From the NCBI RefSeq assembly GCF_000372465.1, contig NZ_AQUZ01000002.1, forward strand, positions 62,160 through 126,159: DNA of 64,000 bases. Direction: 5' to 3'. The stretch is from Kribbella catacumbae DSM 19601 (GTDB taxonomy: Bacteria > Actinomycetota > Actinomycetes > Propionibacteriales > Kribbellaceae). The notes below the pieces were generated by a model. It had not been told where the DNA came from. It did not search any database and was given only the letters and a program-made list of their open reading frames with translations. The position numbers and the translations under genes are program-made. The first letter of the stretch is position 1. Every line of letters begins with the position of its first letter. Shown piece by piece: positions 34,814-58,462 of the stretch.

Positions 34814-36463
34814 TCAAACACCGTCAGAACCTTCACAGGCAGTGTCGGCCGCCTCGGCGTCCGCACTTTCGGCTTGCAGTAGCTCGCGAGCAGCGGCGGC
34901 GTAGCGGATGGCGGTGGGCGCAGTGACGCCGAAGACGGCTGCTAGGTGGAGTGGGTCGAAGCCGCGGACGAGCGCTTCGTCGAGCTGTCTGTCTTGGCGA
35001 AGTCGTTCAATCGTGGCGGTGAGTCCCCGGACGGGCTGGTTGAGCCAGCTGGACGTGACCGGGCTCGTTTTCATGGCCGTTTGGCGGCTGATGATCAGGT
35101 GCGGGTTGGTGCTGCGTGGCCACAGCTTGGTCCGGTAGTCGAGCCAGTCCCTGATGGCCTGGTAGGTGAGGTCGTCGACGGGACGTGTGAGACCTGCGAT
35201 GGTGATCCGCCGGTTGCCGAGGTCGACGTTGTCGAGCTGGAGGGTGCGGATGTCGCCGGTGCGGGCGGCGTGGACCGCGGCGAGGGTGAGAACGAGTCGC
35301 GGTAGCGGGGTGCTGGTGTCGTTGACCTTGGAGACGGCGTCGGTGATGTCGTCGGGCTGCAGCGGGATGAGGGTTCGGTAGCTCCAGATGCCTTTGGGGA
35401 GCTTGGTGGTGGGATCTCGGAAGATGGTGCCGGTGCGTTTGCAATGGCCGAACAGGGAACGCAGCGCGGTACGGGTCCGACCTTGCTTGTTGCCCTGGAG
35501 CGGGCTGGTGCCGTCGGCGCCGTTGAAGAGGTCGAGGAGGTCTTCGGTGGAGACTTCGCGTAGGTGGGAGTAGCGCTGAGACCATGCGGTAAGAGCCGGC
35601 AGCAGGGTGCGGAGGTAGCTGCGCACGGACTCTGGGGCGCGTGGGCGGCTGCGTGGTCCACCGTCGCGCAGCCGTAGGTGCCAGGCCGTGACGTCGTCGC
35701 GGATTCCGGGGGCGAGTAACGCGACCTTGCGCTCGAGCCAGCGGTCCTGCGTGGGGACTCGATCGTCGTCCAGGAGCCCGATCGCAGCGAGCACGGCGGT
35801 CGTGCGTTCGACCGGGATCCGGCGAGACCGCAGAGCCGGGAAGAGCTCGCTGTGCCGAACAGCCTCGCCGTGCTTGTTGGTTGACAGCACGATCACGAGA
35901 CCGACGTTGACCTCGCGGAGCGCCAGCGGTGACCAGCCGCGGCGCTCGGCGAGATCCTGAGCTGTGTGGAAGGCCCAGTTCAGCCAAGGGTTGTCGGACT
36001 CGAAGTGGAAGTAGCGCCGATCGACTCGCTCTGGCAGTACGGCTCGGGTGTAATCGCGAGCCATGTCGAACAACCGCAGCTGCGTACCCCCGATACAGTG
36101 GCGGCTCGGTATGGTCAGCGGCGGGAGCCGCTGACCATACGTTCGCCGGTCGGCTGGCCGTGAGGGCTTTGGGTCGGTTTTGCGGGGGCGCTGCATGTGC
36201 GCGAAGAACAGTTGGTGGTAGCGGGTGTCGGTCATGTGTGGAGTCAAGCCCCAGTGTGGTGTGCCCCGCATCCGGTCGCTGGCACATACCCAGCACAATC
36301 GGCAAAAGCCCTTGCTGAGCGCGATCGTGCGCGCGCAACCGCCGCAGACCCCAACGGGATGGTAGAAGCTGAAGCGATGGCACGGGCTGCACCGGCGGCC
36401 TGGTAATCGCCCCCAGGCGAAGCAGTCCACGCAGCTCGACGGTGGTTTTCTGGTCAACCTCAA
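34814..36463 (-). CDS. Recombinase-like protein with N-terminal zinc ribbons
   Basis: A 549-residue protein (TTG 36463, GAAGGG upstream). The N-terminal 60 residues have three C-x2-C pairs (SSCVDC, RRCSPC, GVCGGC and FCRLCWVC). The C-terminal half resembles a tyrosine recombinase: VHAARTGDIRTLQLDNVDLG contains the catalytic arginine region, but no clear HxxR follows. The end is FDPLHLAAVFGVTAPTAIRY, more like a helix-turn-helix. Last of three co-directional genes with an XRE regulator and a full tyrosine integrase. Probably a partner recombinase of a multi-protein site-specific system. Confidence 0.7.
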   Translation of the reverse strand: MRLTRKPPSSCVDCFAWGRLPGRRCSPCHRFSFYHPVGVCGGCARTIALSKGFCRLCWVCASDRMRGTPHWGLTPHMTDTRYHQLFFAHMQRPRKTDPKPSRPADRRTYGQRLPPLTIPSRHCIGGTQLRLFDMARDYTRAVLPERVDRRYFHFESDNPWLNWAFHTAQDLAERRGWSPLALREVNVGLVIVLSTNKHGEAVRHSELFPALRSRRIPVERTTAVLAAIGLLDDDRVPTQDRWLERKVALLAPGIRDDVTAWHLRLRDGGPRSRPRAPESVRSYLRTLLPALTAWSQRYSHLREVSTEDLLDLFNGADGTSPLQGNKQGRTRTALRSLFGHCKRTGTIFRDPTTKLPKGIWSYRTLIPLQPDDITDAVSKVNDTSTPLPRLVLTLAAVHAARTGDIRTLQLDNVDLGNRRITIAGLTRPVDDLTYQAIRDWLDYRTKLWPRSTNPHLIISRQTAMKTSPVTSSWLNQPVRGLTATIERLRQDRQLDEALVRGFDPLHLAAVFGVTAPTAIRYAAAARELLQAESADAEAADTACEGSDGV

Positions 36464-36482
36464 GTCGCCCTTCGGATCCCCG

Positions 36483-36818
36483 TCAGAGTGGTGGTAGGGA
36501 TCGTCCGTCGCGGCGCTTGGGTGTTATGGCTGGCGACGCGCCGCCATGTCCGGATGCCTGCGCAGACGGCTTCTCTGCGTCGTCTGATTGCGCGATGACC
36601 TTGTCGGGCTCGGGGAGTAGCAGTTCGTTGACCGGGCATTGCAGCACGGCGCAGATCACGTCTAGGTCGTCGAGTTTGATACTTGCAGGCTGACCGGACC
36701 ACAGGTTCGACATCTTGCCCGCGGAGATAACCAGGCCGTGATCTGCGAGCATCCGCTGCAACTCGCTGGCCTTCCAGATGCTGCGATTGGCAGCGGCGAG
36801 CCGCAGATTCCACTTCAT
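36483..36818 (-). CDS. XRE-family helix-turn-helix regulator
   Basis: A 111-residue protein with a Cro/CI-type HTH: ASELQRMLADHGLVISAGKM then SNLWSGQPASIKLDDLDVIC and ALQCPVNELLLPE. The C-terminal tail is polar and disordered. Its ATG overlaps the stop of the integrase (TCAT on the plus strand), so the two are coupled, and 19 bases separate it from the third gene. It probably controls the element's recombinase genes or acts as a recombination directionality factor. Confidence 0.85.
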   Translation of the reverse strand: MKWNLRLAAANRSIWKASELQRMLADHGLVISAGKMSNLWSGQPASIKLDDLDVICAVLQCPVNELLLPEPDKVIAQSDDAEKPSAQASGHGGASPAITPKRRDGRSLPPL

Positions 36819-37924
36819 GACAGTGTTCCTTCCTGGAGTCCGTTCAGTCGATCGGCGGCCCGCTGGCTGCCAGCGATCCAGGCGTCCTCGATCCGGGTTC
36901 GGTGGACGTGGACGTAACGCATCGTGGTGAGGATCCAGGAGTGACCGAGTAGCTCTTGGATTGCGAGCAGATCCATCCCCGACAGGTAGAGCTGGCTCGC
37001 GCAGAAATGCCTCAGTACATGTGGAGTGAGCTTGCCCGCCCAGGCCGGCAGGTGTGCCGCCGTCGCCTTGACCAGACCGCGCCGCAGTGCATCGTCACCC
37101 ACCCGCGCACAGCTCCCGTCGAGGTTCTTGCGTTCGGACGGAAAGAGCGGCGCACCAGGCCGCAGGTGATCGTCATCGAACTGGCCCCAGACGTCCTCGA
37201 TGAACCAGCGCAATGTACGGTCGGCGCCGTTGATCAATGGCACCAGCCGCTCCCTGGGCCCGCTGCCTCGGCTGCCTTTGCCCCAGCGAACGTGCAGCTT
37301 GCCGAATCGGCCCAGGTCCCAGCGCACATCGGCCAGATCCAGACAGCGGACCTCGTTGACACGCAGACCAACCTTCGACATCAACCGGGATGCGGCGAAG
37401 TCTCGTGCCACCGGAGCGAACTTTCGGCACCCGGCAAGTTCGTCGCGCCAGCCCCCGAACAGCGCTTCCAGCTCCAGCTCGGTCGGCGGTATCCGCAACG
37501 AGGCCGCGGTGACCGCTCGCGGCCGGTTCAGCTCGTCCAGCGGGCACTCGACCATCCGCCCTGTCAGCTGATGGATCTCGACCTTGTGTCGCAGCTCGAG
37601 ATACTCGAAGAACACGCTCAACGAGCTGGCCCGGCTGGCCCGGGTCGTCTTCGGGCTGCTGCGCAGGACCCGCCCGAAGTAGGCGTCGGCGTCAGCCGGC
37701 TCCATCTCCCACAGCGGACGACCAAACCATGCCCGAACATGCTCCAGCCGGGCGACGTCGGCCTGGATCGATGAATCCAGCAACCCCGCAGACGCTCGCG
37801 CCAACACGAACCCAGCCAGGACATCGGTCTCGTAGCCAGCCAGCTCCTCCGGCCCAGCCAAACCACGGCGATCCCGCAGGTCACGAACCACAGCCAGGCT
37901 CAAGTCCCCCACCTTCGACTTCAC
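36815..37924 (-). CDS. Tyrosine recombinase (integrase)
   Basis: A 369-residue protein with SAM-like N-terminal domain (residues ~25-115) and an intact catalytic domain: SKVGLRVNEVRCLDLADVRW (Arg I), TPHVLRHFCASQL (H-x2-R), LLGHSW (His/Trp) and TTMRYVHVH (Tyr nucleophile). It cuts and rejoins DNA at attachment sites. It starts with GTG 37924 and is the first gene of the trio down to 34814. The giant STAND gene diverges on the other side. No attachment site or tRNA could be found in the window. Confidence 0.9.
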   Translation of the reverse strand: MKSKVGDLSLAVVRDLRDRRGLAGPEELAGYETDVLAGFVLARASAGLLDSSIQADVARLEHVRAWFGRPLWEMEPADADAYFGRVLRSSPKTTRASRASSLSVFFEYLELRHKVEIHQLTGRMVECPLDELNRPRAVTAASLRIPPTELELEALFGGWRDELAGCRKFAPVARDFAASRLMSKVGLRVNEVRCLDLADVRWDLGRFGKLHVRWGKGSRGSGPRERLVPLINGADRTLRWFIEDVWGQFDDDHLRPGAPLFPSERKNLDGSCARVGDDALRRGLVKATAAHLPAWAGKLTPHVLRHFCASQLYLSGMDLLAIQELLGHSWILTTMRYVHVHRTRIEDAWIAGSQRAADRLNGLQEGTLS

Positions 37925-38329: not shown

Positions 38330-41300
38330 ATGTCATCCACCTCATCAAAGGACCCGATCCCCAGCGACGGCGAACGGAACGCACTGGTTGGCTACAGCGC
38401 CCAGTTCGGGCTGGCAGCAAAGCTCGTCGAGCGCTATATACCCACGCTGGAGTGGATACGCGTCGCAGATCCCAGCGCGGGTGTGGCGGACGACTTCCAA
38501 TTCGTTTCGGCAGGGCGCCGGCACGCGCTGCAGGTCAAGTGGTCACAGTTCCCGACCACGTTGAACTTCAGCGACCTGTTCGGCAGCGTCAAAGGAAAGC
38601 CATCTCTGTTCGCAGGGCTCGCGGGCGCCTGGAAGCGTATCCGCAAAGAGTGGACCGGACCCCTGACGGTTCATCTGTGCACGAACAACAGTCCCTCGAT
38701 CGCGAAGCCAACGGCTGGCACTGCCCTGGCGACCGCTCTAGTCACCACCCGGCATTTCGCGGCGTTCCTGTCGCAGTCGTTCATCCCAGTGCGAGACGCA
38801 CTCCGGCTCAACCCGACTGACGAGTGGTCACAGATCGCCTCCCACGACCTGGTCACTTCCTGGTCGGACACGTGGTTGGCCATCAAGGACGCCAGCGGGC
38901 TGGCTGAGGACGAGTTTGCGGACTTCCTCCGTGACTTCGATTTGGCCCTCATCCCACTCGACCACTCAGACCTGCTGCCGCCGCGCGCCATCAAGGACCA
39001 GAACCACCTCGCAGCGACCCTCCAGCAAATCGTCGTCGACCCCGCCAAAATCGTCCAGCTCAACCGATTTCAACTCATGGCCAGACTCGGCTGGTCTTTA
39101 CGAACCCGCTACCAGAATCCACATCGCTTCCCTGTCCCCGATACCTACACCGCGAACAGCGCCGCACGCACTGCGCTCGAGGCTGCGATAGCCGGCCACT
39201 CGCACGGATACCTCGCAATCATCGGACCGCCAGGCTCCGGAAAGTCGACCCTCGTGGAGAAGATCTCCATCACCGGTCGCCTCATCAGGTACTACGCGTT
39301 CGTTCCAGATGCTCCGGACCCGTTAAGTGGTCGCGGCGAGGCACAAAGCTTCCTGCATGACCTTTCCCTGGCACTCGAGGAAGCCGGTATCTACCGCGAC
39401 GGTTTCGGCACCGACATCGTCGGCCAACGAGAGGTGCTGTTCGCCCAGCTCACGCGAGCCGGCGATGCCTACGCCAAGGACGGCACCCGAACCACGATCG
39501 TCATCGACGGGCTCGACCACATCCCGCGCGAACAGAACCCGACCCGGTCCCTAATAGACGAACTTCCTCCCCCTGCCGCGTTACCTGCAGGAGTATGTGT
39601 CGTCCTAGGCTCACAGACCACCTCGATATTGCCCACGCCGGTCCGAGAAGCCTTGAAGGACGACCAGGATGGCGCGCGCGTCGTCGAGGTCCCACCCCTC
39701 TCGGACGACGAGGTCGAGTCGATCGCGAATCTGGCCGGACTGGACGACTGGCTGTTGCCTGGACAGATACGCGATCTGGTGGACGTCAGCGAAGGCCACC
39801 CGTTGGTGCTCACTTACCTGATCCAAGATCTACGCAGTCTTGAGACCGGGCCAGACGAAGAAGCACGTCGTAACGTCGCCGGGCACACGCTCACGGCCGC
39901 AGCCGAATACCGCGGTAGCATCGACCAGCGATATAGCCACTACCTCGGGTCTCTGGCGGAAGACGACGACGACGTCTTCGCCATCCTCGGAACAGTGTGC
40001 CGACTTCGGATCCCAATCGACCTCGAGTGGCTGGAGACCTGGGTCGAAGCCGCCGCAGTCACGCGGTTCGCAAACCTGACGCACACGTTCTTCCGCCGCG
40101 AAGACAATGAGTGGACCTTCATCCACAACAGCTTCCGTCGATTCCTGGTCGACCAGACCGCGATGGTCGGCGGCCAAATTCGCGACTCGAGGTCACGCCA
40201 ACTTCACGAGCACCTCGCCGACCGGTGCGCCGCAAGCACGGACTGGCCCCAGTACCAAGATGAGGAACTCGGGCAGCGCTACCTCGCCGGACAGTTCCAG
40301 CAGGTCCTCGACGCCGCCACACCTGCGCATCTCCGTGGGAGCCTGATCGCGGGCCGACCCTACGGAGTCGTCCGTGACCAGGCCGTCGTCGTTCTTCGAG
40401 CCGCAGCAGAAGCTCACGACTACCGAGCCCTGAACCGCTCACTCATGTTCATCAACGAACTGCACCAACGTGACTACGTTATCGACGCCGACACGATGGC
40501 AAAGACCATGAGCTATGTGGACCCAGCGCGAGCTGTAGAACACGTTGTTCAGGGAAGAAGCCTCCGGATCGGGGCTCCTGCAGCTCTGGAGATCGCTGCC
40601 GGTCTGGCCGCAGACAACTCGCTTGAATCGGCCGAATCGATTGTACGCGCCGCCGGCGGGCTCCAAGGCCTGACCGCTGACCTGGGCCGTTCCCACGCGC
40701 GCCCGCACGAATGGAGGCCGAGCCTCGCAGACTGGGCCGAAGTCACCTGGTACCGCTCAGGACTCGACCGTGTACTCGACGAGTTGGACCACCTTCTTCC
40801 GCTCCCTGGACCGATCATCGAGGCAAACAGCACTGGAACCAGCGACGACGATGACGACCTCAGCATCAGTGCCGGACAGCCGATCGCAGATTCCGCCCAG
40901 GTAAGTGCCGGTGGGGACCAGGTTGGCGACGCCCTTGTGAAGGCGTCCGATGGACAGACCGGTGACCCGATCGATGCGGCCGATGAAGGCGATGCCGAGA
41001 CGACCGATGACACCACCGAGGCCACGGACCCCGGCAGCACCGGGCCGATGGTTGGGGATTACCGGCGGAAAGCCGAGCACGAAGCACGCCTGGCGAGAGA
41101 AGCGCGGGCTGCGGTTGTATCGGCACGAAACGCGGTTCATGCCCGTTGCTTCGACCTCGCCGACAGCGTCCGCGACGGCGAAGCGTTGTCGCGCCTGGCC
41201 GAAAGGATCAACGCCGAGTCCGGTTTTGACTGGCGCGCGCGTATGCACGTCGTCGCCGCTCGCACGGCGAACCAAGATGGAGATCCCGTCGAAGTACTAC

Positions 41301-44300
41301 GCCAAGTCCGGCTGCTTCTATCGATCGAGAGCCCCGTCAACCCTCAGTCGTCAGGCTCGAGCACAGCCGACGCAGCCAACACGGCCACCGAGCAGCCGGA
41401 CGAGCAAGCCTCGGCTGACCCGCTCGTCGACGTCCTCCCCATGGCCGATGCCGACCACAGCGATCCCTCTATTGCCGGTGCTGCGGCGCTCGACGCTGAC
41501 GACACGGAAGTAGACGACGAGGAGGCAACTCCTCCGAGGCACCGCCTGTCCCTCAATCTCCGAGTCACCGCAGCCAATGCGCTCGCGTTGTCCGGCCAGG
41601 CGCATGCTGAGGAGTTCCGTGAGCTCCTGCCACCTGAAACCAAACCAGCCTGGCCGGACTTTGGCGGTTCCTCGTACGGTCTGAGTACCTATCGGACGAT
41701 TCAACTCGTGCTCCGCATGCGCGAGCTGCATCACCTGATCGGCATCTACGACACGATCCCTGCAGCCGGCCTCGAGGTCCCTGCCTCGGCAACCGACCCG
41801 GCCCGCACGAAGTTCGTTGCGGCAATGACCGATGTCGCCCGGCTCGAAGCACAGGCAATGGCGTCCTCGATGGGTCTCGCCGCGCTCCCCGATGTTCCGG
41901 CATTCGCGGAATCCGTTATTCGCCTCTTGGAAGTGCCGGAGGCAACGACACGACATTGGACGGGCTGGTACCGGATCCCGGAAGCAGGCATCGAGCTAAT
42001 CGCCGGGTTGGTGCCGCTGGCGTACCGGTGTGGAGGCCAGACGCACCTCGACCGGATACTCGCGAAGTTCAAGGCCGCGTGGAAGCACCCTGAGCGAGCA
42101 AGCTACTGGCCTGCACGCAGACGCGTCGCGATCATCCGCGCCGCGGCCGCCTACGACGAAGCCATCGAATGGTGTCGCACAGAACTAGACAACGCCGAGG
42201 GACTCCTCGAGGGCGATCCTCACACCCGATCCGCCACCTGGCTCGAGTTCGCCAAAGCACGAGCCGACATCGCAGACCACCCGAACGCGATAGCAGCAGT
42301 CGGGCACGCCCACCGAGACGGGTGGAGCCCAGGACAACACGACGACGACCGCCAGCTGGTGACCTGGCTATCCTGGCTGACCGCGACAGCAGACATTGCC
42401 GGAATCGACCAGAGCGCTTTCCTGGAAGACGCCTGCATCTACGCCTCTCGTCTCGTCGCAGCGACTGGCGAAGGAGGCCATCAGGTCAGCGAAGCTGCCG
42501 GTGACCTTATCGCCGCGGTATTTCAGCGCGACGCTGGACTTGCCACCAGCATGGCCGAAACCTTGTGTGACCGCGGCGTCATCAAAGAACAAGACATGAT
42601 CACGGCCCTCCTGCAGGGTGCAGCTCGGCGAACGGACGTCGCCCCGGAGCTGGTCGGATCCTTGCTGACTGAACTGCTCATGCCGCTCACGCCAGATACT
42701 CCGGACGACCTCGAAGAGACCCTTCTCGATCGGTGCACGAACACGGCGGCAATGACCGAACAGTTCGCGCGCGCTCGCTTGCTCTGGTCGGTTTCTACCC
42801 CTCGAACTGCCGACGAGGACACGACCCCGCCACCCCCAGCCGGGGCGACCATCACGGAAGAGGGCCCTGTCCTGCCGCTCGCCGCAGCCCTAGGCCAGAT
42901 GCGGTCCCACAACGATCTCGCCGTCGCAGCAGACACAGCGCAACGCTGGTCGCGCTCGATCGAGCAGTTCACTGGAGCGGCTCATCGGCCGCTTGCGCTA
43001 GCTGTCCTGGAGCAGGTGCAGCGAATCCAGTTGGGCGACCTCGACGTGGCACGAGCTGCAGGGATCGCATCACGTGCCGGCGCGACGGACGAGGCCCGAG
43101 AAGCGCTCAGTCACGTCCTTGCCCGAACCACCCCCTTCGGTTGGAAGCGCAACTGGGATGGCGGAAGCCGCCTCAAACTGTTCGAGGCCGCGATCCGCGA
43201 CAGCACAGACGACCTCGTCGACCTCGCAGCCCGCGACCTGGCCGGCCTGGTTGCGTCGAACGCTATCGCCGGAGACTTCTTCCCAGGCGACCTCAGACGC
43301 TTCGCTGAACTGTTCGGGGGGACGGACCTGGTCGCGCAGTGCTGGGCTGACATCCGTGACTACCTCGACGTCTTCGCGCCGGCTAACGAAAAGCTCGCTG
43401 GGCTGCAGCCCAACATCGCGGACCAGCCCGAACTTGAACTCATCACCTGGACGTCAAAATCCCTCGCCCACCCGGTCAGGATTATCGACTTCGGGGCCCG
43501 CCGAGTACTCGCCCACAACTACACCCAGCACCGAACCGATGTTGAGCTGGCTCTCGCGGAATCAGTTGCAGCCGGCGGTTGGTTTGCCGAGGCGGCTCTG
43601 CACGTCCTCGTCCGGGTCAGTGCCGAAACCGCTACCTCCACAGCAAACCCCACGACGTCCCAGACCACCCCTGCAGGTCTATCACCCGCACTGATAGCCG
43701 CCCTCCAAGAGGCAGCTATCAGTGATGATGCCCTCAACCGCCACCTCGCATCCCAGGCTCTGAGTCTCAACGGACTTCGACCTGCGATAGCTGCTACGGC
43801 CGACCTCCCGGCGTTCTACAGAATCGAACTGCCGCCACTACCCGAACGTGATGTGCCTGCCCTCAACCGAAATGGCGTTCCGTTCGTCGACACCACTAAC
43901 CCGCAACAAGTCATCGCTCCCTACGACGAACTACTCGCCGGCGTCGCCGGCGCTGTCAGGATCGAGGCCAATACCCTGTACCACCGCGCGGCATCACTGG
44001 GACAAGCCAAACCCGATCGATGGACCGAGGGCGGCCACAAGGCACACTCTGAGCGGCTAACGAGAAGAGGCAACCGGCACTTCTATCGACCCTGGGCCTA
44101 CATGATCGGCCGCCGCGCCAGCGCACGCGTCCTAGCAGAACTGATCGACGCCCATGTCCTGCCCCACGGGCTGCACTCCCCTTGGTTCGCCGTCCTCTTC
44201 GACGACATCTTGAACTGGATCACTCCACACCCACTCGACTACACGACGCCGTTGCCGTGGCGTTCACCCGAGGGAAAGGATTACGCCTCAAAGGAGTGGT

Positions 44301-44941
44301 GCGACGAAGCCCAACCGGCAGCCGAACACTACGCAGAGACATTCGCTGGCAACCACGTACTCAGCGAGAACTCCGAGTGGCGGTGGCTTACATGGGAGAC
44401 CCCCAAGGAAATCCGTCGTGTACGAACCCGATACGGCAGACCCACCACAACACTCCTAACCACTGAGCCTGCATCTACCACAGAAATGACCGCCTACGAC
44501 GCAACGGGCTACCCCGCCCTGCGCGACCTGACCTGGTCCCACGAAGAACTAGTCGTCCGCGGAAGCTCGTATGACTCTGACACCGAGCGCCTCCATTGGC
44601 TCGCGCTGCATCCCGCAGCCGCGCACGCTCTAGGTTGGATCAAAAGCGACACTACGTTCGAGTGGATCGGCGGCGACGGCGACTGGCGAGCCCGAAGCGT
44701 TTTCCGCATTCGAGGACAGCTCAGCCATCGGCCGCCCGCGAAGGCCACCTGTGCTGAGGTCTGGCAAGTCATCCTCAGCGACCAGGGATGGTCAGAACTG
44801 ACCACGAGGTTCCCGAATCTCGAACGCACCGTCAAGGTGAACCGCGTGATCGAGGAGGACCAACGAAAGCAACGGGGCCGGGTCGAGTCGAGCGCTACGG
44901 CGACCATCGCTGACGTCCCCCACGTAGAGCCGCCAGTCTAA
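38330..44941 (+). CDS. Giant STAND NTPase with Cap4-like nuclease domain (Avs-like antiphage protein)
   Basis: A 2203-residue single protein. Residues ~15-75 have the DUF4297/Cap4 PD-(D/E)xK pattern: GYxxQ at 21-25, D54/D55, then LQVKW with Q68 and K70. The NTPase has Walker A GPPGSGKST at 299-307 and Walker B TTIVIDGLDH with Asp393, followed by a helical STAND region. Behind it lies a long helical-repeat-like part with two acidic low-complexity linkers (near residues 835-905 and 1005-1065) and a distinct C-terminal region. This matches Avs proteins, which sense phage proteins and then cut DNA. ATG 38330 has no strong ribosome binding site. Confidence 0.85.
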   Translation: MSSTSSKDPIPSDGERNALVGYSAQFGLAAKLVERYIPTLEWIRVADPSAGVADDFQFVSAGRRHALQVKWSQFPTTLNFSDLFGSVKGKPSLFAGLAGAWKRIRKEWTGPLTVHLCTNNSPSIAKPTAGTALATALVTTRHFAAFLSQSFIPVRDALRLNPTDEWSQIASHDLVTSWSDTWLAIKDASGLAEDEFADFLRDFDLALIPLDHSDLLPPRAIKDQNHLAATLQQIVVDPAKIVQLNRFQLMARLGWSLRTRYQNPHRFPVPDTYTANSAARTALEAAIAGHSHGYLAIIGPPGSGKSTLVEKISITGRLIRYYAFVPDAPDPLSGRGEAQSFLHDLSLALEEAGIYRDGFGTDIVGQREVLFAQLTRAGDAYAKDGTRTTIVIDGLDHIPREQNPTRSLIDELPPPAALPAGVCVVLGSQTTSILPTPVREALKDDQDGARVVEVPPLSDDEVESIANLAGLDDWLLPGQIRDLVDVSEGHPLVLTYLIQDLRSLETGPDEEARRNVAGHTLTAAAEYRGSIDQRYSHYLGSLAEDDDDVFAILGTVCRLRIPIDLEWLETWVEAAAVTRFANLTHTFFRREDNEWTFIHNSFRRFLVDQTAMVGGQIRDSRSRQLHEHLADRCAASTDWPQYQDEELGQRYLAGQFQQVLDAATPAHLRGSLIAGRPYGVVRDQAVVVLRAAAEAHDYRALNRSLMFINELHQRDYVIDADTMAKTMSYVDPARAVEHVVQGRSLRIGAPAALEIAAGLAADNSLESAESIVRAAGGLQGLTADLGRSHARPHEWRPSLADWAEVTWYRSGLDRVLDELDHLLPLPGPIIEANSTGTSDDDDDLSISAGQPIADSAQVSAGGDQVGDALVKASDGQTGDPIDAADEGDAETTDDTTEATDPGSTGPMVGDYRRKAEHEARLAREARAAVVSARNAVHARCFDLADSVRDGEALSRLAERINAESGFDWRARMHVVAARTANQDGDPVEVLRQVRLLLSIESPVNPQSSGSSTADAANTATEQPDEQASADPLVDVLPMADADHSDPSIAGAAALDADDTEVDDEEATPPRHRLSLNLRVTAANALALSGQAHAEEFRELLPPETKPAWPDFGGSSYGLSTYRTIQLVLRMRELHHLIGIYDTIPAAGLEVPASATDPARTKFVAAMTDVARLEAQAMASSMGLAALPDVPAFAESVIRLLEVPEATTRHWTGWYRIPEAGIELIAGLVPLAYRCGGQTHLDRILAKFKAAWKHPERASYWPARRRVAIIRAAAAYDEAIEWCRTELDNAEGLLEGDPHTRSATWLEFAKARADIADHPNAIAAVGHAHRDGWSPGQHDDDRQLVTWLSWLTATADIAGIDQSAFLEDACIYASRLVAATGEGGHQVSEAAGDLIAAVFQRDAGLATSMAETLCDRGVIKEQDMITALLQGAARRTDVAPELVGSLLTELLMPLTPDTPDDLEETLLDRCTNTAAMTEQFARARLLWSVSTPRTADEDTTPPPPAGATITEEGPVLPLAAALGQMRSHNDLAVAADTAQRWSRSIEQFTGAAHRPLALAVLEQVQRIQLGDLDVARAAGIASRAGATDEAREALSHVLARTTPFGWKRNWDGGSRLKLFEAAIRDSTDDLVDLAARDLAGLVASNAIAGDFFPGDLRRFAELFGGTDLVAQCWADIRDYLDVFAPANEKLAGLQPNIADQPELELITWTSKSLAHPVRIIDFGARRVLAHNYTQHRTDVELALAESVAAGGWFAEAALHVLVRVSAETATSTANPTTSQTTPAGLSPALIAALQEAAISDDALNRHLASQALSLNGLRPAIAATADLPAFYRIELPPLPERDVPALNRNGVPFVDTTNPQQVIAPYDELLAGVAGAVRIEANTLYHRAASLGQAKPDRWTEGGHKAHSERLTRRGNRHFYRPWAYMIGRRASARVLAELIDAHVLPHGLHSPWFAVLFDDILNWITPHPLDYTTPLPWRSPEGKDYASKEWCDEAQPAAEHYAETFAGNHVLSENSEWRWLTWETPKEIRRVRTRYGRPTTTLLTTEPASTTEMTAYDATGYPALRDLTWSHEELVVRGSSYDSDTERLHWLALHPAAAHALGWIKSDTTFEWIGGDGDWRARSVFRIRGQLSHRPPAKATCAEVWQVILSDQGWSELTTRFPNLERTVKVNRVIEEDQRKQRGRVESSATATIADVPHVEPPV

Positions 44942-45106: not shown

Positions 45107-46384
45107 GTGCTTGTTGTACCAGACGCCAACGTACTCATGGCAGATCCCCTTTGCCGCGGCATCGCGTGGAAGATTGTGGCCCACGCGCCGTCCCGGTGGA
45201 ATCTACGGGTGTTCGTCCTCGAGGCCATAGTTCGCGAAGCAGTGGCTGGCCACGCTCGGTCCGTTGTCGAAGGGCAGGCCGCACTGCGTCGCTGGTCGAG
45301 GAAGTTTCATCAGGACCGGATCTATAGAGATGCACTCCCGAGGCTCGCCCAGGCGGAAGAAGGCTACGAGCAGCAACTACGCCTCGCCCTTGAGCAATTG
45401 GGGGCAACGATCGCACAGCCGGCCGACATCCCTCACCTTCAGATCATCGACCGTGCAATCAATCGCCGTCGTCCGTGCGACGCCAAGGGGGATGGCTACC
45501 GCGACACCTTGAACTGGCTTACGGTCCTGGATCTGGCGCAGCGCCACCCGCACGAGAAGGTGGTGTGGGTCAGTAACGACAGAGATTTCACCGACAACGA
45601 CATAACGGTGTTGCACCCGCACCTCATCGAAGATCTCGATGAGCGCGGCCTGCAGGGCCGCGTCCTCTTGGCCAATACGCTCGCCAACGTCGTCTTGGCG
45701 ACCGCGGCTGAGAACTTCAGCCAGCCGGTCACCAACCTGCGAGACCTGCTGGAGCAGGTTGAGTACGAGACTGTCGTCGAGCTCGTGCTGAGTGAGATTG
45801 CGGGTGAGGCGCTGGGTGCTCATGTTGATCCTGCGAGTTGTGCACTACCGCTGGCGTCCTACGACGCAGTGCTCACAGGCTTCGTGCCGCCCGCCGCGTT
45901 CGTCAGTCTTGAGGTGAAAGGCTCCGACGCTGATGGCCAGGCGATCGCCGAGTTCGCCGTAACCATGCTGTGCAAGGTCACCTTCGCTTCAGGCGTGCCA
46001 CCACGTGACGACGAGATCTACGAGGGACCGTTCACCACTTCGAGCATCACCAAGCCGCTCGTGATCCGGGGCCTCGTAACCCTTGGCGCCTCATATCGGA
46101 GACCTGACGGTGTAGAGGCCATTAGCGTGACGGCGCCTCCTAACGACCCAGGCCATGCTGCCTGGCAGCTCGTGGACTTCAGTTCGGGAGCCCAGGCAGT
46201 TACTGAAGTTGTTACCAAGGATTGGCGGCAGCGCCTTCAGAGCCGAGGGCTGGCCGAGCTTGATTCGCAGGTCCTGCAGGCCGCGGTTGCTGAGCTGGCC
46301 GAACCGATGTGGCAGCGGTTTCAGGCCGATTCGCTCGCTGAGCCCCCGCAACACGACCAGGAGCCGGAGACCCGCAGCTCCTGA
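45107..46384 (+). CDS. PIN-domain nuclease (DUF4935-like)
   Basis: A 425-residue protein starting at GTG 45107 with AGGAGG upstream. The N-terminal 190 residues form a PIN domain: VVPDANVLMADP (first Asp), KGDGYRDTLNW (central acidic cluster) and VVWVSNDRDF (third Asp). PIN domains are Mg-dependent RNases or DNases. The second half (~220 residues) has no recognisable domain. It lies 165 bases after the STAND gene, same strand, so it may be a co-selected defence nuclease. A toxin role is possible but no antitoxin is next to it. Confidence 0.8.
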   Translation: MLVVPDANVLMADPLCRGIAWKIVAHAPSRWNLRVFVLEAIVREAVAGHARSVVEGQAALRRWSRKFHQDRIYRDALPRLAQAEEGYEQQLRLALEQLGATIAQPADIPHLQIIDRAINRRRPCDAKGDGYRDTLNWLTVLDLAQRHPHEKVVWVSNDRDFTDNDITVLHPHLIEDLDERGLQGRVLLANTLANVVLATAAENFSQPVTNLRDLLEQVEYETVVELVLSEIAGEALGAHVDPASCALPLASYDAVLTGFVPPAAFVSLEVKGSDADGQAIAEFAVTMLCKVTFASGVPPRDDEIYEGPFTTSSITKPLVIRGLVTLGASYRRPDGVEAISVTAPPNDPGHAAWQLVDFSSGAQAVTEVVTKDWRQRLQSRGLAELDSQVLQAAVAELAEPMWQRFQADSLAEPPQHDQEPETRSS

Positions 46385-46473
46385 CGTCGGGTGCCGGCGT
46401 GTCCCTTCGGTTAACCCCTGTGAGCTGCTTGGGTCGTTGGACCGCAGCGCGGGCCACAGAACATGCGGTCAGC

Positions 46474-46953
46474 TCAGCTGGCATCAAGGTGGTGGCAGAG
46501 GTCCCGAGACTGATAGCCGCCAAGGACACCTCCTCCGGCTGCAGCCCAGAAGAGGCGCGAATCGGGCAGATGGCTGCCGAGAGTGTGCCAACTCGGCCCA
46601 GGATTCTCTTGCCGCAACGACATGAGACCGGCCGTCGCGAGTCCGCCACGCTGAAGATCTTCGCGTGTGTAGGGCTGCTCGACCCAGCCCAGTCCACAGG
46701 GCCGGCAAATCCGGTAGTCCACGGCGAAGGCAAAGTCGCCGTCCGGTTGTGCAGGATCGTTGGCGGCGCGCTCTCGCCAGCCACGGCGCTCACCGGACAT
46801 GGTGTCTTGCCAAGGGCTGTTGAGCCGTGGAGTCTGCGGCCAGCCCGCAGCTCGCCCGAGGCGCCCGCGACTGACTCGTTGGAGGAGATCACGGACCGGA
46901 TGACGACCGGAAACACGGGCGACAAGGTCCGTCGATGCGACCAGTTGGCGCAC
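46474..46953 (-). CDS. Hypothetical protein with acetyltransferase-like C-terminus
   Basis: A 159-residue frame from GTG 46953. The C-terminal part reads RPCGLGWVEQPYTREDLQRG, then GLATAGLMSLRQENPG and HTLGSHLPDSRLFWAAAG. This resembles the end of actinobacterial GNAT-like hypotheticals with a Cys-x2-Cys pair. The N-terminal part is Arg-rich and less convincing, so the gene may be truncated. The start is uncertain because an upstream ATG would run into the cutA gene. Moderate support from the coherent C-terminus. Confidence 0.5.
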   Translation of the reverse strand: MRQLVASTDLVARVSGRHPVRDLLQRVSRGRLGRAAGWPQTPRLNSPWQDTMSGERRGWRERAANDPAQPDGDFAFAVDYRICRPCGLGWVEQPYTREDLQRGGLATAGLMSLRQENPGPSWHTLGSHLPDSRLFWAAAGGGVLGGYQSRDLCHHLDAS

Positions 46954-46990
46954 TACGCCCGCCCGCTCCGGATCGAGTTCTGATCTGGAG

Positions 46991-47858: not shown

Positions 47859-48425
47859 CTAGTTGCAGGTCAGGGTCAGGGCCGTATCGACGATCGCCGC
47901 TCGGTCGATGCCGTGGATCTTGTATGCGTCTGTCAGGTCGGAGGACTGGCCGAACTCGGTGACGCCGAGGTCCGGGTGCGGCCGCCGCGCAGGCCGGCCA
48001 GGACGGCGAGCGCGCGCGGGTGACCGTCCATGACCGTCACCAATGGGCCGGGGAAGCTGCTGGGAACAAGGTCGACGCGATGTCGCTGCCGCGTCCCTGT
48101 GCTGATCGGAAAAGCAGATCAGGGCTTATCAAGCAGATCACGACGGCATTGATCCCTAGCTCGGTGAGCTTGTCGGCTGCTGCGATGACCTCCGGCATGA
48201 TCGCGCCGACACCGACCAGCGGGGCGTCGTCAGCGACGGCGGGGCGCAGCGTCAGGCGGTAGCCGCCGGCGGTGGCGCCGATTCCCACCGCGTCGGTGGA
48301 GAAGTCGACCGTGTCCGGGTCTTCAGTCGACTGGGGTAGGACTGCAAACCGCCTTTGGTACGCAGGGTCGTCATGTACTCGGCCTCGAGATCTCCGAGCA
48401 GATAGTTGATCGCGTGCGTACGGGG
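47859..48425 (-). pseudogene. Decayed transketolase/pyruvate dehydrogenase E1-type gene
   Basis: Minus-strand fragments in shifting frames match a TPP enzyme: HAINYLLGDLEAEYMTTLRT and GGLQSYPS, then EDPDTVDFST-AVGIGATA, a deletion, then APLVGVGAIMPEVIAAADKL, SPDLLFRSAQGR, VMDGHPRALAVLAGL and GVTEFGQSSDL-DAYKIHGID to a TAG. At least two frameshifts, a stop and a large internal deletion between the TPP-binding and C-terminal parts are evident. The remnant cannot make an enzyme. Confidence 0.75.
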
Positions 48426-48534
48426 GAGACATGAGCCCGGCTGTGTTGGGCCGTGCCAACCACCAATGAACCCGCTGATCCTCGTGTCCGTCTTGCGGTC
48501 CTGGAGCCGGCAGTCGGCGGCCGGGACGGCTATC

Positions 48535-49434
48535 GTGCAGAGCGTGCCGGGACTACGGAGGATCCTCACCGACGGTGAATCGAAGGTTGACCGTGTCCTC
48601 GACGAGTACGCGCGTGACAACGGTTACCGCTTGCTCCTCAAGCCTCGCTTCCGCGACATCCTCGACGTCGACGACATGCGCCTGACCGGGCGCGAGCGGA
48701 ACTTCACCTTCACGGCACACTTCGACTTCGTAGCCGCCGACGCCGCAACCGGCCTGCCGATTCTTGCGATTGAGTACGACGATGCGCGCCATCGGACGGA
48801 TCCGCAGCAGCTGGAGTGCGACAAGATCAAGGATCGGCTTTGTCAGGCCGCTGGTCTGCCTATGCTGCGGGTCGATAGCCAGTTCGCCCGTCGCGAGGGC
48901 CGTTGGCGGGTGCTCGGCTACATCTTGGAGATGCACGAGGTCGGCAAGGCTTTCCACGCGGCCCAGCAAGCTGGGCAGGTTCCGTGGGACGAGCCTTTCA
49001 TGCACAACCTGATCATCGACACGAGCAACTCCAGGCGTCCGACATTCACCGGCCTCGATCAGGCTGCGTTAGAGCGGCTCAGCGACCTGCGCGCTGCCGG
49101 TGTGATCGGGCGCTACGGGGGGTGGTGGCGCGACGTCGACGGACAGATCGAGGCGTGCTGTGTGCTCGATCTGCCGAACGGCCAGTTCATCTCCTCGCTG
49201 GTCTCGATCCGCAAGTTCGCGATCGAGGGCATCTCGGCTCACGCGGTCGCCGACGAACTAGCGACCGCCGAACTCGGCTGGCTGATGCAGCGCTACGAGG
49301 CCGGGGAGCCGGTCGCGCTCAGCGCCCAGCAGGGCAATGCGCTGCTGGATCGGCTCGGACGCGACATTCGTCGTGCCTGGTCTCCAGAGGGCTGGATGAT
49401 GCGCTGGGGCTCGATGCCGTCATCGGAGCCCTGA
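48535..49434 (+). CDS. DUF2726-type PD-(D/E)xK nuclease-fold protein
   Basis: About 299 residues from GTG 48535 (start uncertain; ATG 48466 is open too). The first part reads TDGESKVDRVLDEYARDNGY, then FTAHFDFVAADAATGLPILA followed by IEYDDARHR. This is the D...E-x-D pattern of DUF2726, a PD-(D/E)xK nuclease-like domain. The C-terminal ~150 residues are unknown, with an RRPTFTGLDQAALERLSDLR part. Accessory, possibly defence-linked, but many such proteins have no known role. Confidence 0.7.
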   Translation: MQSVPGLRRILTDGESKVDRVLDEYARDNGYRLLLKPRFRDILDVDDMRLTGRERNFTFTAHFDFVAADAATGLPILAIEYDDARHRTDPQQLECDKIKDRLCQAAGLPMLRVDSQFARREGRWRVLGYILEMHEVGKAFHAAQQAGQVPWDEPFMHNLIIDTSNSRRPTFTGLDQAALERLSDLRAAGVIGRYGGWWRDVDGQIEACCVLDLPNGQFISSLVSIRKFAIEGISAHAVADELATAELGWLMQRYEAGEPVALSAQQGNALLDRLGRDIRRAWSPEGWMMRWGSMPSSEP

Positions 49435-50971: not shown

Positions 50972-53900
50972 TTACTCACTCGACGAGTCCTTCCTCCTGT
51001 CCCGGCGCTTCGGTACCTCCGGGGCGGGCCGCGCTGGCTTGTCTTGCTGGGCCGGCTGCGGTGCGGGTGCGGATTCCCGGATACGGGGAGCTGAGCCCGG
51101 TTTCCTGACTTGCTGCGGGGATGTGCTCATAGGTGAGCTAGGTGCGCGCTCGACATGTGGTGAGCGTGTGGGACGGGGGATGCGCGGCGACTCGCCCTTG
51201 CTGGGCATCGTCGTTGCTTTGCTGTTGCTCGGACCAGGGCCCTGTGGAGGCATGCTCGGGGGCCTGCTAGCGCCGTCCGGCTGGCCGTGGGCGTTGCCCG
51301 CCGAGCTGTCGTTACTTCTGCCGTTGGGCCTGCTGATTTTCTGAGCTGTTGATGGACCCGTCTGGCCAGGGGATCTGCGATGGTTCCGGTTCTGTGGTCC
51401 GACGCCCAGATCTGTCAGGCCGCCTTGGTGAGTGACGGTTTCGGCGAGGTCGCGGTCTTTCTGTGAGCGATTGGGGCGCGTGCCTGGCTTGTTGTCGCTG
51501 GTCGCGATCGGTGAACCGGTGTCAGCCACGGATGAGTGGCTGTCACCGGTCCTGCCGTTACCTGCACCGTCGGTGCCGTTGCGCGCATCAGCTCCACCGG
51601 CGCTTCCGGTCCCTCCGGCACCGGCCACATCTGCCCCAACTGGCAACTCGCGGCCCGAAGCCGGGCCGCCGCGGCCGCCTGGAACTCTGGGGCCAACAGG
51701 GTTGCCTGCGGGTCCGCCGTCGCCGGGCGGGAGCATCGGTCCGGGCGAGCGGCCCTCGAGTTCGCCTGGACCACCGCCAGTAAGCTCGCCCCGCTGCTTG
51801 CCTGCTAGCGACAGGCCACCGTTGGTGCCGCCGGCATTTGTCGTGGCCCTGCCCGGCTGGCCGGTGTTGGTGGGCTTATGAGGACCTGTCTTCGGTGGCT
51901 TGCCGCCCAGTTTGCCCATCATGCCGGAGGCCGCGGCCATGCCTGCCCCCGCGCCCAGGCCGTTGGCGATCGCAGGCATCAGGCCGCCGTTGCTCTGCCT
52001 GGGCGGGGTGGTCGTGTCCAGAAACTTGTCGACCAGTTTGGTCACCGCCTCGTCGAGTGCCTTGAGGACCGTCTTGCGTACCCGCAGCAGGGTGAAGGTC
52101 ACCCCGATGATGAGGATGATCGACACGACCGTCATCACGACCACGGCGATCGAGCCGAGCACCGGGTTGCTGAAGATGTTCGCGAAACCGCGGCCTGAGC
52201 CGGTCGGGTTGCTGCTGACCAGCTTCGCGATCGGGCCCTCGATGATCTGTGGAAGCGAGACCAGGAGCTCCGAGACGAACTGGTAGAGGAACAGCGTGAC
52301 CAGCACTTCGAGGATCATGGCAATCGAGTAGATGACGACCTTGGCGATGCCGGCCATCACGCCCAAAGTGGCGAAAGGAACTGCCGCGACGGTGCCGAAG
52401 GTCCGGCGCAGCGCACCGGTGAGCATTCCGACGCCGTAGAAGATTCCGATGAGTGTGATCGAACTGAGCAGGGTGAAGGTGTTGGCCCAGTACATGAACG
52501 ACGCCGGCCCGTTGCCGATCTGAGCCACCGACGAGTGGAACGAACGCGTGAAGCCCGAGGTCACCTTGTTGGACGAGAAGATCGTCATCGAGTCCGTGTT
52601 GAACTCGGTGTTCAAGTAGTTGTAGGCGCTGAGCGGGGACAAGTTGCAGTCGGCCGGTTTACCGTCGGTGTTCGGCTCGACGACCGTGAAGCCGCACTTG
52701 GTGTTGCCACTGGCCGAGGTGAACTCGGTGCTTTCGCCGTCGGTTCGGGCTGTCAGGCCGGACCCGCTCGTCGCGAGTAGCGGGTGTTCGTTGGGAGGCA
52801 CGGGCTTGTTGCCGTCGCCGAAGTCCTGGGAGTCCTTATAGCTCTTGCCGAGGAACCAGTCCTTCTTCAAGTCCCAGTCCACATCCTTCGGGTCGATCGC
52901 GGTCACCGACCCCTGGATGTTCGATTCGAAGTCCGACGCGTTCACCGTCTGGCCCTGGAGGTAGCGGCCGAGCATGCCCAGTGTGGCGAACACGGCGTTC
53001 TTGTCGGTGTCGTTGTCCTTCAGCCGCGGGGTGCTGTTGGCCCAGGCGCTGCCGGCGTCGCTGATCTTCTCGCCAGCGCTGATTCCGGGGAACTGCCCGG
53101 TCTGCGCGTTGATCGCGAGTGCGGAGTTCCGGGCCGAGAACACCGAGACAGGTTGGGCGTGGCCGGTGCTTGCGTCCCAGGTGATCGAGGCGTTCGCCGG
53201 CACCTGGAGGCGGTTCGTGTTCATCCATGCGTCGAAGTCGACATAGGTCGAGAGCACGACCTTCGTTGGGCCCGAGCTCTGTGAGAGCAGCGAGTCGTCG
53301 AACTGGTTGAGGATCGAGGTGTACATCCCGCCGATGAGAGGAAGCCCGACGCCGATGAAGACGATGCGTACGGCAACCTTCTTGATGGCGCTGCCGCGCT
53401 CCATCTTCTTGAAGAAGACCAACCCGAGCAGCAGGAAGCCGATAAAGAGCGGCACCAGCACTCCCCACGACAGCGACACGAGCGCGCCGTACCACTGGGA
53501 CACGAAGCTCGACAGGCCCGAGAGGGCTTCCGGTGTCGTGTTGACGCCCGACGATGTGGTCACCATGCCGTCGGCCCATGTCTTGTAGGTCGGGGACACT
53601 GCCGCGATGCCGTCATGGAACCAGAGGAAGGGGTTCAGGAGCTTCAGGATCTGGATGAAGATCCAGAACAGCAACGAGACCCCCATGGCCAGCGCGTAGA
53701 CCAGCCAGATCAGCGAGCCGCCAACCGCGTGGATCATCGGGTCGAAACCCGCGGACGACATCATGGCGTCGAAGCCGAGGTCGTGTGCGGCTGCTCCGAA
53801 GTGGGCGTAGTCCTTCATGCCGGAGGCTTGTGCGCTGTCGAGCGCGTCGTACTTGATCGTCTGTGACGAGCCCGAGATCGTTGAGAACAGCCATTTCACG

Positions 53901-54253
53901 AAGCCGTCGTCGTCGGCGTAACCGAGCATCGAGCCGGCCTGGGCAGGGTTGGCGACAACAGTCTTCCAGGAGTTGCCTACTCCTTTACCGCCGTTCTCAG
54001 GGGCGCTCTTCTCACTGAAGTACACGCTTGCGTTCGAGGCGAGGTGGTAGAGGCTGTAGTCCTTCTGATCCTTGTTGCTCGGGTCGTCGGCCTGCGCCAG
54101 CGGCGCTACCGCGAGCACGATGAGCAACGCGAGCAGAGCCGCGAGCAGCCCGCCTGCGACGGTCCGCATCCAGGACGGCCGCGCGTCGGCGGCTGCGATG
54201 ACTCGTCCACGCAGCCACATGACGGATATCGTCGGCGTGCTGTGTCGAGTCAT
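50972..54253 (-). CDS. TrbL/VirB6-like conjugation membrane protein with disordered C-terminus
   Basis: A 1093-residue protein. It starts with a signal/anchor (TVAGGLLAALLALLIVLAV) and has an extracellular region, several membrane helices (for example ALAMGVSLLFWIFIQILKLL and WGVLVPLFIGFLLLGLVFF, and later LLSSITLIGIFYGVGMLTG), and a Pro/Gly-rich hydrophilic tail of over 300 residues ending in basic residues. This layout fits the channel protein (VirB6/TrbL) of actinobacterial type IV secretion. Its start overlaps the end of the VirB4-like gene by four bases. Last gene of the leftward operon. Confidence 0.75.
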   Translation of the reverse strand: MTRHSTPTISVMWLRGRVIAAADARPSWMRTVAGGLLAALLALLIVLAVAPLAQADDPSNKDQKDYSLYHLASNASVYFSEKSAPENGGKGVGNSWKTVVANPAQAGSMLGYADDDGFVKWLFSTISGSSQTIKYDALDSAQASGMKDYAHFGAAAHDLGFDAMMSSAGFDPMIHAVGGSLIWLVYALAMGVSLLFWIFIQILKLLNPFLWFHDGIAAVSPTYKTWADGMVTTSSGVNTTPEALSGLSSFVSQWYGALVSLSWGVLVPLFIGFLLLGLVFFKKMERGSAIKKVAVRIVFIGVGLPLIGGMYTSILNQFDDSLLSQSSGPTKVVLSTYVDFDAWMNTNRLQVPANASITWDASTGHAQPVSVFSARNSALAINAQTGQFPGISAGEKISDAGSAWANSTPRLKDNDTDKNAVFATLGMLGRYLQGQTVNASDFESNIQGSVTAIDPKDVDWDLKKDWFLGKSYKDSQDFGDGNKPVPPNEHPLLATSGSGLTARTDGESTEFTSASGNTKCGFTVVEPNTDGKPADCNLSPLSAYNYLNTEFNTDSMTIFSSNKVTSGFTRSFHSSVAQIGNGPASFMYWANTFTLLSSITLIGIFYGVGMLTGALRRTFGTVAAVPFATLGVMAGIAKVVIYSIAMILEVLVTLFLYQFVSELLVSLPQIIEGPIAKLVSSNPTGSGRGFANIFSNPVLGSIAVVVMTVVSIILIIGVTFTLLRVRKTVLKALDEAVTKLVDKFLDTTTPPRQSNGGLMPAIANGLGAGAGMAAASGMMGKLGGKPPKTGPHKPTNTGQPGRATTNAGGTNGGLSLAGKQRGELTGGGPGELEGRSPGPMLPPGDGGPAGNPVGPRVPGGRGGPASGRELPVGADVAGAGGTGSAGGADARNGTDGAGNGRTGDSHSSVADTGSPIATSDNKPGTRPNRSQKDRDLAETVTHQGGLTDLGVGPQNRNHRRSPGQTGPSTAQKISRPNGRSNDSSAGNAHGQPDGASRPPSMPPQGPGPSNSKATTMPSKGESPRIPRPTRSPHVERAPSSPMSTSPQQVRKPGSAPRIRESAPAPQPAQQDKPARPAPEVPKRRDRRKDSSSE

Positions 54254-56568: not shown

Positions 56569-56615
56569 CGTCTCGTTTTCTCCTGCGTATGTGCAGGGGT
56601 CGTGGTGCTGTCGGG

Positions 56616-57497: not shown

Positions 57498-57545
57498 AGT
57501 TGCTGTCCTTACTGCCGGGTCATCGGGCCAGGGAGTCCTCGGCTG

Positions 57546-58430: not shown

Positions 58431-58462
58431 CAAGGAAGTCCTTTCCGTTGCTGCCGCGGAGT

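What the first reader, a model, noticed from the sequence alone, without database searches (positions are those of the whole stretch)
38330..44941. 2203-residue Avs-like STAND protein with Cap4-type nuclease and acidic linkers
The nuclease (E/D...QxK at 41-70), P-loop (299-307) and Walker B (Asp393) are intact, and the remainder is a very long repeat-like sensor region. At 2203 residues it is larger than most described Avs proteins, and the two highly acidic insertions plus a C-terminal region with WxW/WITPHP-like sequence are unusual. It lies beside recombinase genes, as in mobile defence islands. The phage trigger is unknown.
Basis: partly seen in the sequence, partly recalled or inferred. 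Interest (0 to 1): 0.75.

Follow-up and report, generated by a model that had tools for sequence, protein, structure and literature searches.

The report
Terminase-sensor-like Avs nuclease (Cap4–STAND)
This actinobacterial gene encodes one giant protein that very probably detects a conserved phage protein inside the cell and then switches on a DNA-cutting domain, like the known bacterial immune receptor Avs3; it belongs to a widespread but poorly named family, so it is a new member of a known kind and not a new kind of system.

Summary
The ORF at 38330-44941 is a real 2203-residue gene. It carries a Cap4-type nuclease (invariant D47, D54, D55, K70; Q68 in 73/75), a STAND/NACHT ATPase (GPPGSGKST 299-307, DGLDHI 393-398, HNSFR 599-603), a long helical sensor and a β-rich C-terminal domain. 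Two AlphaFold2 models are confident (pLDDT 88 and 83). Both have the cryo-EM Avs3–terminase complex (8dgc) as top Foldseek hit. For the sensor half 8dgc is the only structure below E 1e-3, and VIA-align gives Z 17.2 over 851 residues, colinear to the C-terminus, against 8.8 for the next structure. By sequence the ATPase and sensor are homologous to Avs1b, but the protease and companion genes of Avs1 are absent. A further 134 relatives (about 2,040 aa, single gene, many phyla) keep the catalytic residues. Their neighbours match many known defence models, whereas control genes match few. Best reading: a stand-alone Avs (AVAST) receptor with Avs3-like architecture, probably triggered by the phage large terminase and acting by DNA cleavage. 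Curated libraries name the family only as sub-threshold 'Avs1b'.

The parts
38330..44941 (+). Complete gene, 2203 aa, Cap4-type nuclease - STAND ATPase - helical sensor - C-terminal domain (Avs3-like)
   Evidence: ORF; homologues; structure
38360..38950 (+). Residues 11-207: Cap4-type PD-(D/E)xK nuclease; D47, D54, D55, Q68, K70
   Evidence: Conservation; Pfam Cap4_nuclease in 4 of 48 relatives, best E 5e-4, but not in the window protein itself; Foldseek Avs3 and Cap4
39119..40249 (+). Residues 264-640: STAND/NACHT ATPase with winged-helix part; Walker A 299-307, Walker B D393, HNSFR 599-603
   Evidence: Pfam NACHT/AAA_16/AAA_22 E ~2e-5; PADLOC Avs1b 5e-19 over 280-773; VIA Z 20.8 MalT, 19.6 Apaf-1
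40250..44329 (+). Residues 641-2000: helical repeat (TPR/HEAT-like) sensor, interrupted by the two linkers
   Evidence: AF2; Avs3 as unique close structural match; profile homology to Avs1b
40805..41074 (+). Residues 826-915: acidic disordered linker, present in <20% of relatives
41339..41533 (+). Residues 1004-1068: acidic disordered linker without K/R, present in <20% of relatives
44330..44938 (+). Residues 2001-2203: conserved alpha/beta C-terminal domain (family consensus WLAxNPxxAxxLGW)
   Evidence: consensus; strands; aligned to Avs3 up to residue 2077
34814..37924 (-). Upstream recombinase trio: tyrosine recombinase 36815-37924, HTH protein 36483-36818, second tyrosine-recombinase-like gene 34814-36463 (mobile context, not part of the receptor)
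   Evidence: Pfam

Best explanation
A single-protein antiviral STAND (Avs/AVAST) receptor of Avs3-like architecture. At rest the ATPase holds the N-terminal nuclease monomeric and inactive (inferred). During infection the C-terminal helical solenoid and terminal domain bind a conserved phage protein, most likely the large terminase subunit (TerL) (inferred from the full-length structural match to Avs3 in its terminase-bound form). ATP-bound receptors then oligomerise, probably as tetramers (inferred from Avs3/Avs4), which dimerises the Cap4-type nuclease domains. These cut double-stranded DNA of phage and host and abort the infection (inferred). Shown here: the gene is intact; the nuclease and ATPase catalytic residues are conserved across phyla; the predicted fold matches Avs3 over the whole length; the ATPase and sensor are homologous to Avs1b; relatives sit among defence genes; and there is no recurring partner gene. 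Approximate likelihoods: Avs-type nuclease receptor 0.88; terminase as trigger 0.6.
For: Confident AF2 models (pLDDT 87.9, pTM 0.82; pLDDT 82.9, pTM 0.81). N-half Foldseek top hit Avs3 8dgc_A E 5.4e-18 over 904 columns, with Avs4 8dgf E 1.7e-4 and Cap4 7yib E 5e-4. C-half: only 8dgc below E 1e-3 (1.2e-11). VIA: 8dgc_A Z 17.2, 851 residues, rmsd 9.7, model 66-1198 vs Avs3 878-2077, next entry Z 8.8; N-half 8dgc_A Z 17.6 over 630 residues. Avs1b relation: PADLOC 5e-19 for the window protein, all 8 members, best 2e-38; hhalign ATPase 7.6e-36, 640-1000 1.7e-9, 1069-1450 1.2e-7, all colinear. Avs1b searched back against plasmids finds only Avs1b and this family. Invariant catalytic residues in 75 homologues. 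Neighbours of relatives match 137 PADLOC families at E <=1e-10 (Lamassu, R-M, Thoeris, Dsr1, PD-T4-6), control genes 10. Published: Avs proteins form tetramers on phage-protein recognition and activate the N-terminal nuclease (PMC12198126); Avs1-Avs4 recognise terminase, portal or Ksap1 (PMC12931631).
Against: No assay exists for this protein, and no held paper names the six relatives looked up by accession. No sequence-level hit to Avs3 (8dgc) or Avs4 (8dgf) in the PDB sequence searches (one search lists only the best 60 of 223 matches), so the Avs3 link rests on predicted structure. A shared sensor fold does not prove a shared ligand. VIA rmsd is large (9.7-24.7 A), probably because domain orientations differ. 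The window protein alone does not reach Pfam Cap4_nuclease.
Confidence: 0.82

Rival explanations
1. Avs-type nuclease receptor whose trigger is not terminase (portal, a replication or structural protein, or several phage proteins).
For: Avs4 uses portal, Ksap1 is another activator, and Avs5 and Avs2 respond to other or several proteins (PMC12931631). The sensor is the least conserved half (27% mean column identity vs 39%).
Against: The sensor half matches only terminase-bound Avs3 among solved structures below E 1e-3; Avs4 is matched only by the N-half.
Confidence: 0.3
2. An Avs1-type system in which the protease was replaced by a nuclease, possibly working with a separate effector.
For: ATPase and proximal sensor closest to Avs1b by sequence and colinear.
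Against: N-terminal 265 residues unrelated to the Avs1b protease domain. No metallo-hydrolase or avs1c-like neighbour was found in the window (PADLOC, Pfam). No gene recurs beside relatives (at most 7 of 89 loci).
Confidence: 0.1
3. A STAND protein with a non-immune regulatory role (MalT- or Apaf-1-like signalling) that happens to have a nuclease-like domain.
For: The ATPase core is as close to MalT and Apaf-1 as to Avs3.
Against: Conserved nuclease residues, defence-gene neighbourhoods, plasmid carriage, patchy distribution (1 of 38 genomes of the genus).
Confidence: 0.04

Closest known systems
Avs3 (AVAST type 3; cryo-EM 8dgc with phage PhiV-1 terminase)
   Same: Whole-length colinear architecture and fold: nuclease, STAND ATPase, helical sensor, C-terminal domain; similar length (2028 modelled residues vs 2203 here)
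   Different: No detectable HMMER sequence similarity; two extra acidic linkers; host phylum; ligand untested
Avs1b (AVAST type 1, NF041810 / PDLC02159)
   Same: Closest by sequence: ATPase and sensor homologous and colinear
   Different: Avs1b has a trypsin-like protease at the N-terminus and works with Avs1a (MBL nuclease) and Avs1c; here a Cap4-type nuclease and no such neighbours
Cap4 (CBASS nuclease-SAVED; 7yib, 7yia)
   Same: N-terminal nuclease fold and D...QxK motif
   Different: No SAVED/cyclic-nucleotide sensor; activated here by a STAND ATPase (inferred)
Avs4 (8dgf with phage portal)
   Same: STAND receptor with nuclease effector; weak N-half match (E 1.7e-4)
   Different: Not among the C-half matches listed
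Unnamed family annotated 'ATP-binding protein' (e.g. E. coli WP_072643907.1, Rhodococcus WP_213570944.1, Nitrosococcus WP_013028141.1)
   Same: Same full-length architecture; 22-43% identity to these plasmid members, up to about 50% in the N-half of other actinobacterial members
   Different: The window member is longer because of two linkers

Membership tests
STAND/NACHT NTPase superfamily | Walker A, Walker B with second acid, winged-helix region | tested here: met
   Motifs 299-307, 393-396, 599-603 invariant or nearly so; NACHT E 1.7e-5, just under its curated cut-off (25.1 vs 26.7 bits); VIA to MalT Z 20.8, 390 aligned, rmsd 7.2
Cap4-type nuclease | PD-(D/E)xK fold with D...QxK | tested here: met
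   AF2 fold, Foldseek Cap4 and Avs3, invariant D47/D54/D55/K70, Pfam hit in 4 of 48 relatives; activity not tested
Avs3 | Nuclease-STAND-helical sensor-CTD with full-length Avs3 fold | tested here: met
Avs3 | Sequence membership by curated model or detectable homology | tested here: inconclusive
   No Avs3 model named among PADLOC/NCBIfam matches and no 8dgc hit by HMMER; an Avs3 sequence could not be fetched for profile comparison
Avs3 | Activation by phage large terminase; tetramerisation | not testable with these tools
   needs experiment or multi-chain folding
Avs1 (AVAST type 1) | STAND ATPase and sensor homologous to Avs1b | tested here: met
   but 50 bits against the NF041810 cut-off of 1500
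Avs1 (AVAST type 1) | N-terminal trypsin-like protease plus Avs1a MBL nuclease and Avs1c | tested here: not met
   N-terminal domain is nuclease, no similarity to Avs1b N-terminus, no such neighbours found
Avs2 | Sequence homology to Avs2 | tested here: inconclusive
   Weak profile match in the ATPase only (8.8e-7), none in the sensor
Anti-phage defence gene | Located among known defence genes in relatives | tested here: met
   137 vs 10 PADLOC families among 111 neighbours and 104 control genes
Anti-phage defence gene | Confers phage resistance | not testable with these tools
   no assay

The most novel reading that the evidence does not exclude
The family is a distinct, unnamed Avs type that combines a Cap4-type effector with an Avs1/Avs3-grade sensor. 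It has spread across many bacterial phyla, and apparently some archaea, as a one-gene system, and it recognises a conserved phage protein other than terminase or a terminase surface not used by Avs1-3.
Probability: 0.25. Interest if true: 0.6.

Novelty: new member of a known kind. Interest (0 to 1): 0.4.

Why it matters
It shows that a full-length Avs3-like receptor exists in Actinomycetota and in a wide, patchily distributed family that the curated libraries searched here label only through a sub-threshold Avs1b match. A model for this family would annotate many genes now called 'ATP-binding protein', including some on E. coli, Klebsiella, Salmonella and Vibrio plasmids. The combination of Avs1b-like sequence with an Avs3-like fold and a Cap4-type effector suggests effector exchange on a common sensor, which can be tested directly.

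Tried and rejected
A search of genome contigs and viral contigs with the single protein found no relative; an alignment was needed. The order-level genome search failed twice on the server and then worked with fewer genomes. Six family searches meant to fetch an Avs3 sequence gave Avs2 (76, 80, 82, 86), Avs5 (84) and an unrelated family (85), so no Avs3 profile comparison was possible. PDB sequence searches with whole and split alignments gave mostly P-loop, helical-repeat and other chance hits. Idea that the acidic insertions are functional modules: rejected as default, because they are absent in over 80% of relatives and predicted disordered. Idea of an obligate partner gene (for example the PIN_12 gene downstream): rejected, no neighbour recurs. 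Idea that the WITPHP region is a special motif: rejected, it is part of the common C-terminal domain. The gene was not found in phage records. No tRNA or direct repeats that would mark element ends. A literature search for a 'trio' mobile element gave nothing decisive.

Full report
Observation. The ORF is intact, 2203 aa, ATG at 38330, stop ending at 44941, and the other strand is not coding there.

A family, not a singleton. The gene is absent from the 37 other genomes of its genus, and no full-length relative was found in the other 147 genomes sampled from the order (one weak partial hit). tblastn against plasmids finds relatives in Rhodococcus (88% coverage, 41.5% identity), Rhizobium, Vibrio, Nitrosococcus, E. 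coli, Klebsiella and Salmonella. An alignment of eight members then pulled 134 relatives from one-per-species genomes, of which 80 were kept. Of 81 loci inspected, 67 are full length (median 2036 aa from the match start, range 1928-2168), 6 run off contigs and 8 are interrupted. A tree places the window protein with other Actinomycetota members (branch support 100/100) on a long branch of its own. In E. coli the gene is rare (11 of 5426 genomes by near-identity search, 9 on chromosomes and 2 on plasmids) and in two chromosomes inspected sits beside hipAB with two site-specific integrases.

Architecture. AlphaFold2 on 51-sequence alignments gave confident models for residues 1-860 (pLDDT 87.9, pTM 0.82) and 1004-2203 (pLDDT 82.9, pTM 0.81). 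The first contains a nuclease domain (helix 11-34, strands 40-45, 56-60, 63-70), a linker and a STAND ATPase with winged-helix and the first helical repeats. The second is a long helical solenoid ending in an alpha/beta domain (about 2001-2203).

Structural comparison. Foldseek against the PDB ranks Avs3 bound to phage terminase (8dgc) first for both halves: E 5.4e-18 over 904 columns and E 1.2e-11 over 1305 columns. For the sensor half nothing else passes 1e-3. VIA-align gives 8dgc_A Z 17.2 with 851 residues aligned (rmsd 9.7), model 66-1198 against Avs3 878-2077; the next entry, a HEAT-repeat phosphatase subunit, has Z 8.8. The N-half aligns to Avs3 2-751 over 630 residues (Z 17.6; the large rmsd of 24.7 probably reflects domain orientation), with MalT and Apaf-1 higher for the ATPase core alone. 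Cap4 structures also appear.

Sequence relations. PADLOC and NCBIfam recognise essentially only the Avs1b model, far below the NCBIfam cut-off. Profile-profile comparison with four Avs1b sequences is strong for the ATPase (7.6e-36) and significant and colinear for residues 640-1000 and 1069-1450; it fades beyond and is absent for the N-terminal 265 residues. Avs1b searched against all plasmids returns only Avs1b and this family. Avs2 matches weakly, in the ATPase only, and Avs5 not. So the receptor part is an Avs1/Avs3-grade sensor while the effector is a Cap4-type nuclease, not the Avs1 protease whose mechanism (activating an MBL nuclease) is published (PMC12799240).

Surroundings. Upstream lies a minus-strand recombinase trio (34814-37924); downstream a PIN_12 gene and other genes without known defence families. 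No neighbour recurs among 89 family loci (best cluster 7), so this looks like a one-gene system. The neighbours of relatives match 137 PADLOC families at E <=1e-10, including Lamassu, type I and II R-M, Thoeris, Dsr1 and PD-T4-6, against 10 for a similar number of control genes from family-bearing genomes, and most of those 10 look like housekeeping cross-matches. The control is modest: 12 regions, naive ORF calling, related PADLOC models counted apart, and the test set covers more genomes than the control.

The acidic stretches 826-915 and 1004-1068 (net charge -17 each) are present in under 20% of relatives and predicted disordered; relatives have shorter variable stretches at the same places. 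Removing them leaves 2048 aa, the family norm and close to Avs3. The C-terminal tryptophan-rich stretch belongs to the shared C-terminal domain.

Mechanism. Published work has Avs proteins tetramerising on phage-protein recognition, with the ATPase dimerising the nuclease domains (PMC12198126), and Avs1-4 recognising terminase, portal or Ksap1 (PMC12931631). Given the full-length match to terminase-bound Avs3, TerL is the most likely trigger (about 0.6); this is inference, not shown.

Verdict. It is a new member of a known kind: a stand-alone Avs-type nuclease receptor of Avs3-like fold, interesting mainly because the family is wide and poorly named.

Noticed in passing
45107-46384 (+): 425-aa protein with a PIN_12 domain (E 5.8e-17) about 165 bp downstream on the same strand, followed 14 bp later by a 194-aa ORF (46399-46983); it could be cotranscribed but has no counterpart beside relatives.
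   Followed up: partly
34814-37924 (-): Recombinase trio: tyrosine recombinase (369 aa), HTH_26 protein (111 aa), second recombinase-like protein (549 aa), closely packed; resembles Tn554-like TnpABC sets from memory. Element ends were not found.
   Followed up: partly
50972-60889 (-): Minus-strand group of genes: 1093-aa and 772-aa proteins with no Pfam match, a 293-aa protein, and an 808-aa type I topoisomerase (58463-60889); suggests an integrated conjugative or plasmid-like element.
   Followed up: partly
48406-49434 (+): 342-aa protein with DUF2726 (E 8.9e-14) near the receptor gene.
   Followed up: no
L100 11621-14683; L101 11621-14683; L006 5591-8653: In E. coli the relative is preceded by a DEAD/DEAH-box helicase gene; on the chromosomes it lies in an element next to hipAB carrying two integrases (in ECCHD184 also a 788-aa and a 148-aa gene).
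   Followed up: partly
L005 7306-11112: In Nitrosococcus halophilus plasmid pNHAL01 the relative lies near the annotated defence sirtuin Dsr1.
   Followed up: no
L022, L070: Relatives on contigs assigned to Archaeoglobales (35% identity) and Hodarchaeota (28%); both are metagenome bins, so contamination is possible.
   Followed up: no
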